From NCBI GenBank assembly GCA_012845835.1, contig JABAKD010000026.1, positions 8,378,058 through 8,442,057 of the forward strand: a stretch of DNA of 64,000 nt. Reading direction: 5' to 3'. A program made the translations under genes and the position numbers. The DNA is from Undaria pinnatifida (taxonomy: Eukaryota > Sar > Phaeophyceae > Laminariales > Alariaceae). How positions within the stretch are numbered: position 1 is the stretch's first letter; the number at the start of each line of letters is the position of its first letter. The notes under the pieces were generated by a model. The model searched no databases, was not told the origin of the DNA, and saw only the letters and a list, made by a program, of their open reading frames with translations. This document shows, piece after piece, positions 1-22,000 of the stretch.

Positions 1-13
1 GAGCCCTACCGGG

Positions 14-598
14 ATGCTCCACTCGACATCTTCCGGCGATGTGCAACGCTACGTGCCGACTATCGCTGATACTCCAGACATTGCTAACCTGGGCGAAGTC
101 TCGACAATTACGACTACCAGCGGTTCCGGTTCACACGAAACGGCTGTTTCGCCTACCGGGCCATCGCCCCCTGAGCCTGCCTCGACCCCAGATTGGCGAC
201 TGCCCACCCGCTCGTCACAGGACGTGCGCTTTTTCAGTGACAACGTTGCGCCCGCGAACGACGGGTCCCCACTCGCTGCCACGGTGTTGACAGCACCACT
301 GCCCCTGAGCTCGAGGGACAGTCCCGTCCTACACACGGAAGATTCGCAATCACAGTCGACCAGGACATGCTCTGAGCACCCTGCCCCATCATCCTCGCCG
401 GCTTCACGCATTGCGTGGACTCGGGCGACAGGATCTACATGCCCTAGCGAGTACAGCCCTGCTCTCCAAACGCCTGAAGCCAGGATCCCCTAGGGTATCC
501 CCGCCCAGCGTACGCGCCACCGCGTGGACCCTCCCGGTACCTCGGCTTTGCCGAACAATTCCCCCGCGAACTCGGACGTTCAAGTCAGCACCGCCTGA
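14..598 (+). pseudogene. Proline/serine-rich gag-like leader segment, broken
   Basis: This open stretch is in the same reading frame as the NADAR/protease frame downstream. It is interrupted by a TAG at 491-493 and a TGA at 596-598. The product is rich in S, T, P and A with no domain I recognise. Its position before NADAR and protease suggests a disordered linker or the end of a gag-like region; the real N-terminus is off the left edge. It could be a low-complexity chance frame, but the shared frame argues for a decayed polyprotein. Confidence 0.4.
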
Positions 599-1906
599 TC
601 GGATCTGACTCCACCCCCGACAACGCCAACCGGCAATGTCACCAACAATCGCCGACCCCCACCCCCGCCACCCCCATCAGACGAATCACCCTCGCCAGAA
701 CACGACACCGCGGACCCTCCGGATTCTTTCCATTTCTTCTGGAACTCCTCGTCCGTCTTCTCACAGTGGTACCTGTGCGACATCGAGTACGAGAGCGTCC
801 CGTATAACTGCGCCGAACAGATGATGGCGCAGAAGGTTGCGCTCTTCGGGGACATCGCGACAGAGCTTCGCATCCGAACCACCTTTGACCCCGCCGACCA
901 AAAATCTCTTGGACGCACCGTGTCCGGCTTCGACCAGGAGTGTTGGGAGCGACATCGCTACGACATCGTCCTCAACACCAACTTCTGCAAGTTCAACAAG
1001 AACCCGGACCTACAACGAGCGCTCGAGGCAACTGGCGAGAAACACATCGATGAGGCCAGCCCGTACGACCTCGTCTGGGGCATCGGCTACAGGGCTGACC
1101 ACCCGCTCGCCTGCGAAAGGGCGCGTTGGCGCGGTCGGAACCTGTTAGGCCGGGTACTTATGGACGTCCGCGAAAGCCTTCGCTCGAGCCTCAACACCAC
1201 AAGCGCCCCCCTCCCCTGCTCTCGTGAGCCAACATCCACTCTCACCGACTCCAGCCGGGTCTTCCCCACCGCCGATGGCATCCACGAGACAGGCCCCTCC
1301 CCCCTTCAGAAAACGCCGGGTACCCCGCTTGAACTTCTTCTGCCACCCTCCACCCCGGACGCTTTGCCCAGCAGCCACTTCGCTCAGGTCTCCGCCGTCG
1401 ATGCCGCTGCCAACCTATACCCTGCTGCCACCGCGCCGACGATACCAGAACATGGACCATGCCTTACAAGCGGCATTCTAACAGTCGAAGACGCGTCATT
1501 CACGACCGAGGTACTAGTCCACAGCGGCCCTACCGCCGCCAAACGCGGCAAACTCGTGGCGCTGCTCGATACAGGCTCCCCTCAGTCGTTCATCACCGCC
1601 GCGGCCGTGGAACAACTGAAGGCCTTCCGGTCAGCAACGGATGAGTGCGAACGACATAATTCACCTCGTTCATGGGGAGGTTTCGGAACCTCGACTCCCC
1701 TCTCCACCTCCGTTTCCACCCGCTTAAGCATCCAGTTTAAGCACTACCAAACTCCCACCGCCGCCCTGGCAGTATGGGCTTGCGTCGTTCCGGCAGGAAC
1801 TAGGCAGCACCCCATCCTCTTGGGGCGAGATAGCTGGATGCGCTTCGAGCGACGCTCGTATACCACGCTCCCGCGACAGCCCCAGCTGCCACACCAGCCC
1901 CCCTAA
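599..1906 (+). CDS. Retroelement polyprotein segment: NADAR domain plus retropepsin-like aspartic protease
   Basis: The frame is open from 599 to TAA 1904-1906. The first ATG (821) falls inside the NADAR fold, so the domain must be read as part of a longer polyprotein. The NADAR domain spans about 728-1185: aromatic FHFFW start, Glu of CAEQMM, LGR, CWERHR, KFNKNPDLQ, LEATG, EASPYDLVWGIG, and the closing GRNLLGRVLMDVRE. All positions I know as conserved in the YbiA-like NADAR family look intact. Known family members act on ADP-ribose or riboflavin-related substrates, and some remove ADP-ribose from guanine in nucleic acid. A Pro/Ser-rich linker follows, then a pepsin-like half-domain with catalytic LLDTGS (Asp codon 1568-1570) and the flap-distal ILLGRDSW (about 1812-1838). 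The frame stops right after the protease where reverse transcriptase would be expected. The role of NADAR in the element is unknown. Confidence 0.8.
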   Translation, partial: SDLTPPPTTPTGNVTNNRRPPPPPPPSDESPSPEHDTADPPDSFHFFWNSSSVFSQWYLCDIEYESVPYNCAEQMMAQKVALFGDIATELRIRTTFDPADQKSLGRTVSGFDQECWERHRYDIVLNTNFCKFNKNPDLQRALEATGEKHIDEASPYDLVWGIGYRADHPLACERARWRGRNLLGRVLMDVRESLRSSLNTTSAPLPCSREPTSTLTDSSRVFPTADGIHETGPSPLQKTPGTPLELLLPPSTPDALPSSHFAQVSAVDAAANLYPAATAPTIPEHGPCLTSGILTVEDASFTTEVLVHSGPTAAKRGKLVALLDTGSPQSFITAAAVEQLKAFRSATDECERHNSPRSWGGFGTSTPLSTSVSTRLSIQFKHYQTPTAALAVWACVVPAGTRQHPILLGRDSWMRFERRSYTTLPRQPQLPHQPP

Positions 1907-1924
1907 CCGACCCGTGGCGAACTT

Positions 1925-2850
1925 TCTCTGCACCACCACGGCCCCAACGGGGCCTTCGCCTTCATTACCGACGACCGATACACCGACGACGTCTACCACC
2001 TCCGGTTTGCCGGCACCAAATTTGCCAACCCGGGAACAACCTCCCGCCACCCGCACCCTATTCCCTGCGCATCTACGTTCCAATGCTGATGAACCCCTGG
2101 GTGCTGAATACATGCCACGCCGACACCTCCCTACACCTTGAAGTTACCCAGACGGTTCGCATGCTGGCACGGTTTTTCTGGTGGATCGGCATGGACGTCT
2201 CCGCCCGCTGATGGCTCCGCCGTTGCCTTCACTGCCAGGCGCGCAAGACCTCCCGACACACCATTCGCTGGCCGACCCTTTCCCTCCCTTTACCCAACGA
2301 CCCTGGCGTCACCGTCAGCGTCGACTTCTTTGGGCCCCTACCTCTCACACCGCGCGGGAACGTGCACATCCTTTTATTTTCCGACCGTTTCAGCCGCCGG
2401 GCGGACATGCTGGCTGTCTCGGCAGAGAACTTCACGGCCGCCGGAACTGCCGACATCTTGCTCAACGAGTACATCCCTCTCTGGGGGTGCCCGGTGACGC
2501 TCCTCTCCGACAACGGTCAACAATTCACCTCCAAGCTGGCGACCATCGTCTACGACCGCGTTGGCATCCGCAAGGTCAACACCAGCGCCTATCACCCCTG
2601 CACCAACGGCGGCGTCGAGCGGGTCAACCATAGACTGCCCCAGATGCTCTCCATGGTTTGAAACGCGAAGCAAACCGACTGGGACGTGCTACTGCCGCAC
2701 GTGTCGGCGGCCTACAACAGCTCTGTCAACGTCGCCACCGGACTTACGCCCAACGAGATCACATCGGCCGCCTACCCCGCCTCCCGCTCTCGATTTTCGA
2801 ACCCGAAAACATCGGCGGTCACCAGAGCCTGGACCACGACCACCTGGTGT
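1925..2850 (+). pseudogene. Retroviral-type integrase (H2C2 zinc region and DDE core), broken
   Basis: After a short conserved-looking lead (NGAFAFITDDRY, frame 2) the frame changes to frame 1. There a zinc-binding region reads CHADTSLHLE ... WWIGMDV ... CLHC (about 2113-2240), with an in-frame TGA at 2210-2212. The catalytic core has Asp in SVDFFGPL (codon 2323-2325), Asp in LLSDNGQQF (2509-2511) and Glu in NGGVERVN (2617-2619); the last two are separated by 35 residues, the D,D35E spacing. A TGA at 2659-2661 replaces what is probably a Trp codon before NAKQTDWD, and the frame then continues through AAYNSSVNVATGLTPNEI. The catalytic triad is intact, but at least two stops and a frame change make it a pseudogene. 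Confidence 0.85.
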
Positions 2851-3029
2851 ACATCAACCGCGCCACTGACCGGCAACAATGCGCCTGCTCCCTCGTCCGC
2901 GAGCTCCACCGACTCACCGTCTCGCGTCTACAACGCCGCAACGCGCCTATCATGGCCGCCCTCCTCGCCTCCCCCCCTTTCTCCGTTGGCGGCTAGGCCT
3001 GGGTCTACAACTCTGCCTCCACTATCAGG

Positions 3030-3514
3030 GTGTCAGGAAGGGCACCGACGCAACCGCTCTGGAGACGAAGCTCTCGTTGAACTGGAACGGACGGTTCAAG
3101 ACTGCCGACTCCGACACTCCCGACAACCGCCCCCTACAAGGCAAGCTGTTCTTTCTCGATCTTCCTTCAGACCTTCCGGGACGGGACTCCAAACCACGCG
3201 TCTCCGTCAAACGATGCAAGCCCTGCGGCAAACCCGACGTCACCAGCGACATACCCAAGTACCTACCCGCGGACCTCACAACATACGTCTTCACAGCTTA
3301 CGCTGCTAAGTCCCCCCCCTACCACGTGACCCTCGACGACGTCACGCCACCACCGGAGCGCCTCGAGGTTGAGCAGATCACCGGCCACCAACTCGTACGC
3401 GGCCGCGCCGGGGTCATCGCCGTTCTATACGAGACCCACTGGACCGGACTCCTCAGCCCCTCGTGGGAACGCGAGCTCGACCTCCAATACTTCAGGCGCC
3501 ATATCTTACCCTAG
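3030..3514 (+). pseudogene. Integrase C-terminal GPY/F-like region and chromodomain-like segment
   Basis: In frame 2, the segment KLSLNWNGRFK ... LPSDLPGRDSKPRVSVKRCK looks like the GPY/F module that follows the integrase core in Ty3/gypsy elements. It is followed by PPERLEVEQITGHQ ... VLYETHWTGLLSPSWERE ... YFRRHIL (about 3345-3510), which matches a chromodomain-like pattern (start E-V-E-x-I, central aromatic Y-x-x-H-W, closing S-W-E-x-E). In chromoviruses such a domain can guide integration to marked chromatin. Two adjacent TAG stops (3512-3517) end the frame. Downstream coding resumes in the same frame, so the stops are probably mutations. Confidence 0.65.
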
Positions 3515-3517
3515 TAG

Positions 3518-4288
3518 CCCGGAAAGCCGACACAGCACCGCCAGACCAACCGCCTTTACCGCCAGATGCGCATCGGTGCCGCACACCGCGAGTTCTCCCG
3601 ATCTCGAGGCCAACTCTTCCTCGCCCCCGGCTACACCCTGGCCCCCCGCGACCTTTTGCTTCGCAATTTTAGCACCTCCACCCTCCCCTCCGGGGCACAC
3701 GTCTGGTACAAGGCCCGTGACGGCCTCTGGTGGCTAGGCAAGATCGCTCACCGTGCGCCACCGGACGTCTCTTCGCGGAACCCCCCGGACCCTTCCTCGG
3801 GTAGCCCCCACATCGTAAGGTTCCTGGACGACCCCGGCCCGATCAAGATCGATCTCCAGGCCAGCTCGCTACACTACCGCCCGGAACGCTCGTCTCCGGG
3901 TCGTGGTGCCTTCAACGCCTTGGGCATGGGAGCCTATCCCGTGGGGTGCTACGGAACTCTGATGCTTCCCGCGGTGCCCCTACCGTTCCAACTCCCCCCA
4001 TTGGTTAGTTTCCGGTGTTTAGTTGTTTTTGGTGATTCTGCAGTAGTTTTGCGGTTAGTTTTTCACCGTCAGCCTTTAATCTACAACAGCTTTGAGAGTA
4101 CTACCTCATGGTTAGGCCTTTCACCTACGGTAGCTTTGGGAATGATTCTTCATGGTCAGCCTTCAACCTGCAGTAACTTTAGTGGTATTTTATCGTGGTC
4201 ATCTTTCCGACCTAGAGTGGTTTTTCGCCATGTCTTCTCATGGTTAGCCTACAACCGTCATCAGGTTCTGGATTCGGTTTTAACATAG
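3518..4288 (+). pseudogene. Tudor/SH3-like C-terminal module of the retroelement
   Basis: This is the same frame as the chromodomain-like segment, after the double TAG. The recognisable part (about 3690-3885) contains GAHVWYKARDGLWWLGKI and, after a gap, VRFLDDPGPIKIDL. Closely spaced aromatics (W-Y, W-W) followed by a V-R-F-D-D strand fit a Tudor/PWWP-like SH3 barrel, a class that often reads histone or DNA marks. The last 100 residues, rich in F, S and V, look like non-coding sequence read by chance. The fold assignment is by pattern only. Confidence 0.5.
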
Positions 4289-5778: not shown

Positions 5779-6404
5779 TGTGGGGGAATCTATAGCCTTA
5801 TGTATTTGTTTCGAATAACCGCATATTCGACCCCCTTTCCCGGTCTTTTAGGGCGACCTTTGTCGTCACCCTTTGACCGTCTCGAGGTCTGCATATACAA
5901 TTACTCAGGGTGGGCTAATGTAGTAGAGTGTCAGTATAGCTGGAAATAGATTCGGTAAGATAGCCCGCAGAGTCATGGTCTATTGGCCACAAGAAGATTC
6001 TCAAAAACGGAATATTCTGAGTGATGAAGATAACCCGTAGAATCTAGCTAGCTTATACTACAAGAGCGTTCTCGGTAATGGAACGATCCTCCTCTGGACA
6101 AAATAGATAGATGTAAGCGCATTAAGCGCTCATAAGAATATAGAACATCTAGGAGAACGTTCCTTGTACGTTCCATAGGTAAAGGTCCAGAAGAGAGCAC
6201 AGCAGCGATGCTGGGGGGAAGCGGATTCCGTGAGCCTCACCCCACCCCCATGCTCTCATTCCTCCTTTCCTGTCTCCTCGAGCTTCTCATAGCTCAACGC
6301 CAATAATAAGAAATCTACAAAGAAGAACCGGTGCTGTCTCCAAGCGAAGCTGATACCCCTGCGTCCCTTCCCTCACACCTTCCCGGCACCACGACTCTTC
6401 CACA
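5779..6404 (+). repeat. Probable 3' LTR of the retroelement
   Basis: The 626-bp stretch starts with TGTGG and ends with CCACA, a perfect 5-bp inverted end of the TG...CA type, and lies just after the internal region. A G-rich run follows the start. The 5' LTR is outside the window, so the pair cannot be compared and the boundaries are tentative. Confidence 0.45.
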
Positions 6405-19027: not shown

Positions 19028-22000
19028 TCACGCGCGCGTGGCCCAGCCCGAAACCACCGTCCCGCCAGATCCATCACCTTGCAGGGGAGGAGCGTACTGA
19101 GCGCACTCCTTCAGAACACAAGCTCGCGCATCATCAAGGCCATAAGTATGGCCACCATCATCACCACCACCATCGTGATCATCATCAAGCTTTGCTTTCT
19201 CGTTAGTGCTACGCTGAGACCACGGGGTCCCACCCGCACCCGACCCGGCGGCCCAAGACGTCGCGGGACTTGGGGTGCGCGCTGAGGCACGGTCGCTGTC
19301 GCTCACCCCCTGGCAATGCTCCCACCTTGCGCTCGACCGTCCGCGCCCAAAAGGTTGCGGCGGGAACAGCAGGCGCTGCGCGGGGACGTCACCCTCCCTG
19401 GCCTTGCCAAAGTTATGTACGGGCAACCTATCCCCCCCTCTAACCAGGCTTCGCCGGAGTGTTTCGTTATGCCCTTCCAACCTATCCACCTCGTTCCGGA
19501 TCTGCCGCAGGTGTTCCTCTTGAGCAGGGGTCAAAAAAGCCCTCGCCACACCCTGCCTTCCTTCGCTCTCCCTCTCTTTCCCCCGAACAGCCACCGCTGA
19601 AGCCCATCCGCTCTCCCCCGCCACACCGGCCGCTGAGCCCCATTCAGCCTGTTGGTGTTGCTGCTGCCTGCATTCTTCTAAGGCCGATAATGCGTCTTCC
19701 AGACGCCTTTCGGCGTCTGCCCTAGCCTTCGTCTGGGTCGCTTCCCTCCGCCGCGCCTCCCGGGCGCAGACCTCCTTTGCGCGCGCCGCAAACGTAGCTC
19801 GTCGCAAACCATCCCCTCGCCTGCGGCACGCACTAGCTAGCGCCTCCGCTCCCGTGACAAGCTTGTCCAAACACGGATCCGATGTGGGGTTCCACGGTAA
19901 CAGTGACGGGGCCAGCGCAGGAGGAGCACCATCTCCGGAAAGATCGTCGTTGGCCCTGCACTCGTCTTGCAGGCAGCGGGAAATGGTGCGCCACGCTTGC
20001 TCTGCCCCAGCCAAGGCCCTCCGAAGGGCTTCCTCCGCAGCTTGGGCGCGCTTGTCCATATCACGGGCCTCCTCACGCATAAAACGCCCTCCTGCTCCTC
20101 CTTCTCCTCCGTTCTTCTCCGAGTCGGCTTGAGACAAACGAAGGGAACGCTGATCGGCAGCCGCGGTAGCGGCAGCAGCAGTAGCAGCAGCCGCAGTAGC
20201 GGCGGTGGCGGTAGCGGTGGCCTTGGCAGCAGCAGCGACAGCCCTCTCCTCCGCAGTTTTCGCGTCCTGCAACGCCGCACAAAGGCGATCCAGCTCCAGC
20301 TTCCCCTCGGATGCCTTTCCGCGCAGCACCAAAAGCTCCTCTCGCAATTCAGCAGCGACGGAACCCGAGCGTCGCGCCGCATTCGCCGCGGCCAGTGCGC
20401 CACGCAGCGCACCACCGCCGCCACCACCAAGCCCAGCTCCTTTGGCACCATCCGCATGAACAAAATCAGCCGTAGCGTGGATAACAGCTTCTAGCTCCGC
20501 TTCCCGCGCTGCAAGGGAGCACCGCAAGGCCTCAAGCTGCCCCGTGCGTGCCGCGACATCCTCCGCCCGGTCCGAGCTTAGCCTCGCCGCCCGCCCCGAG
20601 CCTTCCACCAGCTCGTCGCGCGCCGCGGTCACAGCTCTCAGGGAGGCCGTCAGAGCATCCACTCGCTCTTGCCACTCCGCCTCCGCCACCTTGACCGCTG
20701 CCGCTACCCGACTTCTGCCGTCCGACAGCAGCTGCAAGCGCTGCTCTTCAGCCGCGGTCGCCGCGCGCTGCTTCACGAACTGCAGCTCCGCTCGAACAGA
20801 CTGCAGCTCTGCGCTGCGCGTGCTGGCCCTCCTTCGCTCCGCGGATGCCTCAGCTGAGGCAACTCCTGCTTCGCTCTGGGACGCCGCAAGGTCCCTTTCC
20901 GCGTCGCGACAACGCTTCTTGAGATTGTTGGCTTCCTCGCGGACATCTCGCAGCTGCGTTTCGCGCTCTTCGATCCGGCGCTTGAAGGTTTGCAGTTCCC
21001 AGTGAAGGTCGTCGATCTGTCGCCGTGAGCGTTGCTGCTCGACTTGCGCCTGAAGAGGTTCGGCCTGGGCGGATGTACAATGCGAAAAGTACACGCAGTC
21101 GGAGGGGGCTTGGTTTATATGCCACAGCCGCGGATATATGCGGTTGTTGAATCAGTGTTGATATGCGATGGATGAATAAGCTCCCAACAGCCACACTAGT
21201 CTGTGAGCTAGGCACTGCAACGCACTCTGTGACATTACGTATGTAACCGTAACTTATTGTTGGGCTATTCGGTGAAACTTTATCTCGAACACGGAACAGC
21301 GGTGCTTGGGGCGGGACGAGGGGATCCAAGCGTGGTTCAAAGCGCTACACCGACCACCCGCATGTAGTCAATCGTTCCGGGAATGTGGTGCGACTGAAAT
21401 GACCTGGGACATCTGCTCTAGTTTATTCGATAGAAAACAACAAAAAAGTCTGCCACACATAACGCCCTCGTCAACACTGTGCCTAATGCCGCGACATGCA
21501 CATAGGGGCAGCTGAACACCACAGTATGTGGCAGCACCATAAAGGTATGTCTTTGATGCCCATGACGAACGCGTGCTACTATATGGGTAACACGTTTTGG
21601 CCAAAGTATTTACATCTGAGTGATGGTATGATACCCGTCAGCCATCAACTAGTCACCCATTGCCCTTGGAAGTTTTTTTCGTGCTTTACCAGGCACTATA
21701 TTCTTGTTCAGTCTCCAAGTATCTAGGCCACATAAATTCTGCGTCGGGGTAAGAATACATATTTTCCTTGACATATCGTTTTGGGGTGAGGTTGTCACTA
21801 TTATTCCTATTAATATCATTGTTGCCCTCCGACAATGTAGCGTAGATGCCGTTCCGATGTAAATCGAATATCCTTCCGCAAGGCGGTAGATTGTAGAGCT
21901 CCTCGCGGTCCTCAAGCCAGAGACAAGTCAGGTGCACCTGTACCGTTAGTAGTATTGGTATAGCCTATTAATGGCATACGCTCACGCTCAATCTTGGCAG

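What the first reader, a model, noticed from the sequence alone, without database searches (positions are those of the whole stretch)
599..1906. NADAR domain encoded inside an LTR retroelement polyprotein, directly before the protease
Seen: one open frame carries a complete NADAR pattern (CAEQMM Glu, LGR, KFNKNPDLQ, LEATG, EASPYDLVWGIG, GRNLLG..LM.VRE) followed by LLDTGS retropepsin, then integrase and a chromodomain-like segment. Known: NADAR proteins act on ADP-ribose or riboflavin-related compounds, and some reverse ADP-ribosylation of guanine. Inference: the element may use NADAR to strip ADP-ribose from its own nucleic acid, or to counter a host ADP-ribosylation defence, during replication. 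The domain is better preserved than the integrase of the same copy, which hints at selection on it.
Basis: partly seen in the sequence, partly recalled or inferred. Interest (0 to 1): 0.87.

Follow-up and report, generated by a model that had tools for sequence, protein, structure and literature searches.

The report
ADP-ribose-removing domain in algal retrotransposon
A large, recently active family of jumping genes in what looks like a brown alga carries, near the front of its replication polyprotein, a conserved NADAR enzyme domain of a type known to strip ADP-ribose from guanine in DNA and RNA; the association was already published for the brown alga Ectocarpus, and its purpose is still unproven.

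The parts
1..598 (+). 5' part of Pol (linker between the Gag/Pol stop and NADAR) of a family-A copy; in-frame stops at 491-493 (TAG) and 596-598 (TGA) in this copy
   Evidence: frame and stops; window -439..2023 matches C25:11997865-12000330 at 91.6%
734..1183 (+). NADAR domain (YbiA subfamily, catalytic Glu in EASPYD); one codon shorter than most family-A copies between the pocket Glu and Lys
   Evidence: (E 2.9e-43)
1562..1579 (+). LLDTGS retropepsin active-site motif
   Evidence: the matching piece of copy L011 scores only weakly against protease families (Asp_protease_2 E 0.031)
2023..2026 (+). deletion junction: about 2.87 kb (end of the PR region, RT, RNase H) absent relative to a Pol-open A copy
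2299..2598 (+). integrase core (rve), its frame bounded by TGA at 2209-2211 and 2659-2661
3365..3487 (+). chromodomain-like segment, below Pfam cut-off
   Evidence: E 0.046
3518..3901 (+). C-terminal SH3-like segment, function unknown, below cut-off
   Evidence: E 0.053 here; PWWP E 0.15 in the C25 copy
5914..6399 (+). 3' LTR as aligned (the 5' LTR lies upstream of the window at about -1026..-540; 487 bp aligned, 95.9% identical)

Best explanation
The window cuts a decayed copy of a Ty3/Gypsy-like LTR retrotransposon family whose better preserved members have a putative Gag frame, then (after an in-frame TGA) a Pol whose first recognised domain is a YbiA-type NADAR, followed by PR-RT-RNaseH-IN-chromodomain. 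Shown: anatomy, recent activity, pocket conservation, purifying selection. Inferred: the TGA is read through in a fraction of translations, so NADAR is made only with Pol, is packaged into the particle with the RNA and RT, and hydrolyses the ADP-ribose-guanine bond on the element's RNA and/or cDNA, keeping the template copyable where host enzymes or toxins ADP-ribosylate guanine.
Against: No activity was measured. No host ART acting on nucleic acid was found; the searches (PARP, DarT) did not complete. TGA readthrough is inferred from frame alone; the upstream frame gives no Pfam hit, so 'Gag' rests on position, and it is open in frame for 938 codons in only 4 of 6 A copies. Deletion derivatives without Gag and NADAR have spread recently, so NADAR need not act in cis. 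The ten other defined pairs give NADAR dN/dS 0.28-0.72, and in L011-L029 and L011-L023 PR is 1.30 and 0.66. The nearest bacterial relatives looked at (8 loci, by eye) showed no evident ART beside them.
Confidence: 0.45

Rival explanations
1. NADAR acts on small ADP-ribose derivatives or as a general N-glycosidase (as reported for riboflavin intermediates), blunting an NAD-derived immune signal or damaged metabolite in the cell rather than cleaning the element's nucleic acid.
For: PMC9503650 proposes soluble ADPr targets for viral NADARs, chiefly those of phages, and cites N-glycosidase activity on riboflavin intermediates (passages). The modelled domain is a 151-residue core.
Against: Embedding in Pol ties it to the particle; PMC9503650 itself favours macromolecular targets for polyprotein NADARs of eukaryotic RNA viruses. 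NADARs tested in the passages seen act on guanine-ADPr nucleic acids.
Confidence: 0.25
2. NADAR is a structural or binding module: it folds and binds ADP-ribose or nucleic acid, or spaces Gag from PR for polyprotein processing, without catalysis being what is selected.
For: Where a PR motif was found downstream, the NADAR-PR spacing is 109-127 aa in own-genome copies (one at 148) and 116-129 aa in most proteins from other genomes (one at 154). In the A-B comparison NADAR is less conserved than RT and close to PR.
Against: The whole catalytic pocket is held, including the Glu and Lys residues needed for hydrolysis in the E. coli C7 enzyme.
Confidence: 0.15
3. Counter-defence: the host brown alga ADP-ribosylates foreign or retroelement nucleic acid through an unknown transferase, and NADAR is the element's answer; an arms race.
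For: Parallel with phage and RNA-virus NADAR and macrodomains and with the active AlkB RNA demethylase in orchid Gypsy elements (outline and abstract only, PMC9289625). Retention over A-B divergence.
Against: No host transferase found (searches unanswered); purifying rather than positive selection in the pairs tested; no precedent of ADP-ribosylation defence against retroelements in algae appeared in the listings.
Confidence: 0.15

Closest known systems
NADAR-carrying Gypsy lineage of Ectocarpus (Gypsy-12_Ec32; Dinatale et al. 2025, PMC12477816)
   Different: Different genome (511 Mb against 200 Mb); here the in-frame TGA, pocket conservation, dN/dS, LTR identity and a structural match are added. 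Direct sequence comparison with Gypsy-12_Ec32 was not possible.
Orphan YbiA-subfamily NADAR of Phytophthora nicotianae (8bau) and E. coli YbiA (2b3w)
   Different: Not part of a Pol polyprotein
Polyprotein NADAR domains of nidoviruses and other positive-strand RNA viruses (PMC9503650, passages)
   Same: NADAR embedded in a replicase polyprotein
   Different: RNA viruses, no reverse transcription or integration; not compared by sequence here
Orchid Ty3/Gypsy elements with an active AlkB m6A demethylase (PMC9289625, abstract)
   Same: LTR element that captured a nucleic-acid modification eraser
   Different: Different chemistry; separate ORF; recent, lineage-restricted
Tx1 LINEs of Crassostrea gigas with NADAR in ORF1 (as reported in PMC12477816)
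   Same: Retroelement with YbiA-family NADAR
   Different: Non-LTR element, different ORF; divergent

Membership tests
NADAR superfamily, YbiA subfamily | Pfam NADAR profile over its full length | tested here: met
   window E 2.9e-43; copy L011 (A) 2.4e-49, L017 (B) 1.2e-50
NADAR superfamily, YbiA subfamily | NADAR fold | tested here: met
NADAR superfamily, YbiA subfamily | Pocket Glu43, Lys50 and catalytic Glu125 (Phytophthora numbering) | tested here: met
   12 of 12 Pol-open copies; 25 of 26 own rows at each of the three. In the window copy the residues are present but one codon is missing between E43 and K50
NADAR superfamily, YbiA subfamily | Guanine-ADPr hydrolase activity | not testable with these tools
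   needs a biochemical assay
Ty3/Gypsy LTR retrotransposon | PR-RT-RNaseH-IN order | tested here: met
   one copy each of A and B (PR by motif and weak profile match only); not met in the window copy, which has lost RT and RNase H
Ty3/Gypsy LTR retrotransposon | LTRs beginning TG and ending CA, with a short target-site duplication | tested here: met
   C19 copy, 491 bp, TSD TAAT; one copy only. In the C57 copy the 5' LTR was not found in the stretch fetched, and the C25 copy keeps only 92 bp of it
Ty3/Gypsy LTR retrotransposon | RT phylogenetic placement | not tested
   no RT tree was built; RVT_1 and RT_RNaseH profiles match
Ectocarpus NADAR Gypsy lineage (Gypsy-12_Ec32) | NADAR at N-terminus of Pol and C-terminal chromodomain | tested here: inconclusive
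   NADAR position met; chromodomain only sub-threshold (best E 0.021); no direct comparison
DarTG1 (DarT-NADAR toxin-antitoxin) | Catalytic Asp in place of YbiA Glu and an adjacent DarT gene | tested here: not met
   Glu in all 12 Pol-open copies; the domain is part of Pol, not an operon partner

The most novel reading that the evidence does not exclude
A eukaryotic retroelement carries, inside its replication particle, a dedicated eraser of guanine ADP-ribosylation because its host marks retroelement RNA or cDNA with ADP-ribose: an ADP-ribosylation defence against retrotransposons and its counter-measure, with the brown algal stand-alone NADAR proteins as possible domesticated or donor relatives.
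Probability: 0.15. Interest if true: 0.88.

Novelty: new member of a known kind. Interest (0 to 1): 0.55.

Why it matters
If the domain is active it would tie reversible nucleic-acid ADP-ribosylation, so far known mainly from bacterial toxins and phages, to retrotransposition in a multicellular eukaryote, and would give a direct entry to the open question of what eukaryotic NADARs are for. Many recent, near-identical copies with a conserved pocket make the question testable with ordinary biochemistry.

Tried and rejected
Rejected: (a) host NADAR gene captured by a single copy: 104 matches of the ORF (97 of 6210 candidates scored) and 150 of 150 scored NADAR matches over cut-off (1454 candidates). 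(b) NADAR-less sister lineage: my first count (64 of 75 RT rows with NADAR upstream) was wrong, since it left out rows and took hits lying downstream of NADAR as NADAR. The recount took the first 80 of the 150 RT rows against 122 of the 150 NADAR rows: 63 of 80 have NADAR upstream, 17 not, and all 23 in frames of 2000 aa or more have it. One of the 17 (C2:18066821) does have a partial NADAR match. Four of the 17 were read: three (C26, C22, C61) are 5' deletion derivatives in which LTR sequence is fused to internal sequence at three different points; the fourth (C57:12324036) matches B only from downstream of NADAR. The other 13 were not read. (c) Unusually fast NADAR evolution or module swap from A-B identity (48% NADAR against 81% RT): PR is about equally diverged. 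(d) Separate captures of NADAR by A and B: the tree does not join all element NADARs, but one clade is not rejected (p-AU 0.20 with the stand-alone algal proteins, 0.30 without); undecided.

Full report
Observation. The frame 599-1906 is open for 435 codons and holds a full NADAR domain, Pfam E 2.9e-43, at window 734-1183; by sequence alone it also finds the Phytophthora NADAR structure 8bau. The retropepsin motif LLDTGS lies at 1562-1579. Downstream, the integrase core is recognisable (rve E 1.6e-8) but in another frame and interrupted by stops, and a chromodomain-like segment is below cut-off.

The window copy. Compared with a Pol-open copy (C25), window -439..2023 and 2026..3709 are contiguous here but about 2.87 kb apart there: the end of the PR region, RT and RNase H are gone. 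The Gag region is mostly missing upstream. The Pol frame has stops at 491-493 and 596-598. The NADAR helix that carries the pocket Glu and Lys is one codon short; another copy, L029, shares that deletion and also has Lys for the pocket Glu. Its LTRs differ at about 4%. The copy is therefore a relic, and its NADAR may not be active.

The family. The window lies in a 511-Mb, 68-contig genome. The ORF gave 104 matches there with 97 of 6210 candidates scored; the Pfam NADAR profile gave 150 matches of 150 scored out of 1454 candidates, all over cut-off. Two families stand out: A (about 83-89% identical to the window ORF in most of its full-length matches) and B (about 44-46%). Six copies of each were read as 10-kb stretches, chosen for their long frames. 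All 12 have an open Pol (2371 aa in five of the six A copies and 2304 aa in the sixth, 2473 aa in all six B copies) with TGA as the codon just before it. The frame upstream of that TGA is in register with Pol and open for 938 codons in four of six A copies; in the C25 copy (L011) it is shifted, and in L015 no such frame of 250 codons is seen. In B it is in register in six of six, open for 277 to 942 codons within the stretch. It has no Pfam match, so I call it Gag by position only. Piecewise Pfam scans of one copy of each family give NADAR, RT, RNase H, H2C2 and rve in that order; the protease is recognised by motif and, in A, weakly by profile. Within a family Pol is 99.1-99.96% identical. 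The C19 copy spans C19:11565896-11581673 (positions worked out) with two 491-bp LTRs without a difference, TG..CA ends and a TAAT duplication. The C25 copy keeps only 92 bp of its 5' LTR, and for C57 the 5' LTR was not in the stretch fetched. The family is or was very recently active.

Is NADAR a fixed part? Of the first 80 RT rows (150 scored, 1703 candidates), 63 have a NADAR match at the expected distance upstream, and all 23 in open frames of at least 2000 aa have it (replacing the faulty count). Four of the 17 exceptions were read: three are LTR-to-internal deletion derivatives lacking Gag and NADAR together, the fourth matches B only from downstream of NADAR. So the domain is standard in the long-frame members, but deletion derivatives without it do spread, presumably with help in trans.

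Selection. For the NADAR codons, dN/dS was 0.21 (window-L011), 0.24, 0.31, 0.28 (L011 with L024, L025, L026), 0.18 and 0.15 (L017 with L030, L033); in 1000 resamples each, none reached 1. These six were chosen from 18 pairs computed; of the other twelve, two were undefined (no synonymous difference) and ten gave 0.28-0.72, mostly very close pairs or pairs with decayed copies, where neutral terminal branches are expected. In the four A pairs the protease gives similar values (0.23, 0.23, 0.26, 0.25); in L029 and L023 it is 1.30 and 0.66. The linker is mostly, but not always, higher than NADAR. Between A and B, NADAR (pN 0.375) lies between the linkers (0.47-0.55) and PR (0.32), RT (0.14); dS is saturated there.

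Origin. In a tree of 91 rows that I picked from the 322 plus two PDB chains, the element NADARs fall with Myxococcota and Planctomycetota NADARs and with stand-alone NADAR proteins of brown algae (99/88 for this group of 54 rows). Those stand-alone proteins are named Ectocarpus (two entries), Pylaiella littoralis and Scytosiphon promiscuus, plus one without an organism name; four of the five share a Cys-rich N-terminus with no Pfam match in the three of them scanned (P0092, P0101, P0163). They group near family B without strong support. A single clade of all element NADARs is not rejected. That the window is from a brown alga is inferred from these named hits; the genome has no name here.

Mechanism. 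The NADARs tested in the passages I saw remove ADP-ribose from guanine, in DNA (PMC11543638, PMC11125620) and RNA (PMC11833690), and those tried did not act on RNA phosphate ends (PMC11833690) or uracil (PMC13036486). With NADAR behind the Gag stop, it would be made at Pol levels and carried in the particle with RNA and RT. A bulky guanine adduct should block reverse transcription (inference). I therefore favour an in-particle guanine de-ADP-ribosylase. Why the element needs it is open: host defence, a toxin-like host enzyme, or damage. Searches for host PARP and DarT families did not complete.

What is known. Dinatale et al. 2025 (PMC12477816; [quoted passage not shown] My searches 'NADAR + retrotransposon', 'YbiA/NADAR/Gypsy/LTR/polyprotein' and 'NADAR/transposable element/brown alga' listed no other paper on it; 20 of 104, 20 of 432 and 10 of 456 hits were listed, only those listings were seen, and only openly licensed papers are held. 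New here, as far as those listings go, are the second large genome, the in-frame TGA, the activity and selection evidence, the pocket and structure match, and the deletion derivatives.

Verdict. A real, selected, recently mobile feature, already reported in kind; the biology it points to remains open and testable.

Noticed in passing
L011-L022, Gag/Pol border (for example L012:3179-3181): TGA just before Pol in 12 of 12 Pol-open copies of two families, with the upstream frame in register in 10 of them; also at the same border upstream of the window copy. Suggests stop-codon readthrough.
   Followed up: partly
L211, L212, L213 (C26, C22, C61): Recent 5' deletion derivatives: LTR, or LTR plus a primer-site-like stretch, fused to internal Pol sequence at three different points, losing Gag and NADAR but keeping long open PR-RT frames.
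   Followed up: partly
L027:3468-3557 (about 0.5 kb upstream of the window): After the 5' LTR the reverse complement looks like the 3' half of a tRNA (possibly Ser, by recall), longer than a usual primer site; ARAGORN calls no tRNA.
   Followed up: partly
P0092, P0095, P0101, P0163, P0155: Stand-alone NADAR proteins in brown algae, four of five with a shared Cys-rich N-terminus; near the element NADARs in the tree, so donor or domesticated gene.
   Followed up: partly
L029 (C36:5257259-5258558): Shares the window copy's one-codon deletion in the NADAR helix and has Lys for the pocket Glu, so NADAR-damaged copies may have multiplied.
   Followed up: no
L203:700-1197 and window 3518-3901: Second, SH3/PWWP-like segment after the chromodomain-like one at the Pol C-terminus, below Pfam cut-offs.
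   Followed up: no
window 19028-21151, minus strand: 707-aa open frame with only sub-threshold Pfam matches, one of them a coiled-coil family.
   Followed up: no
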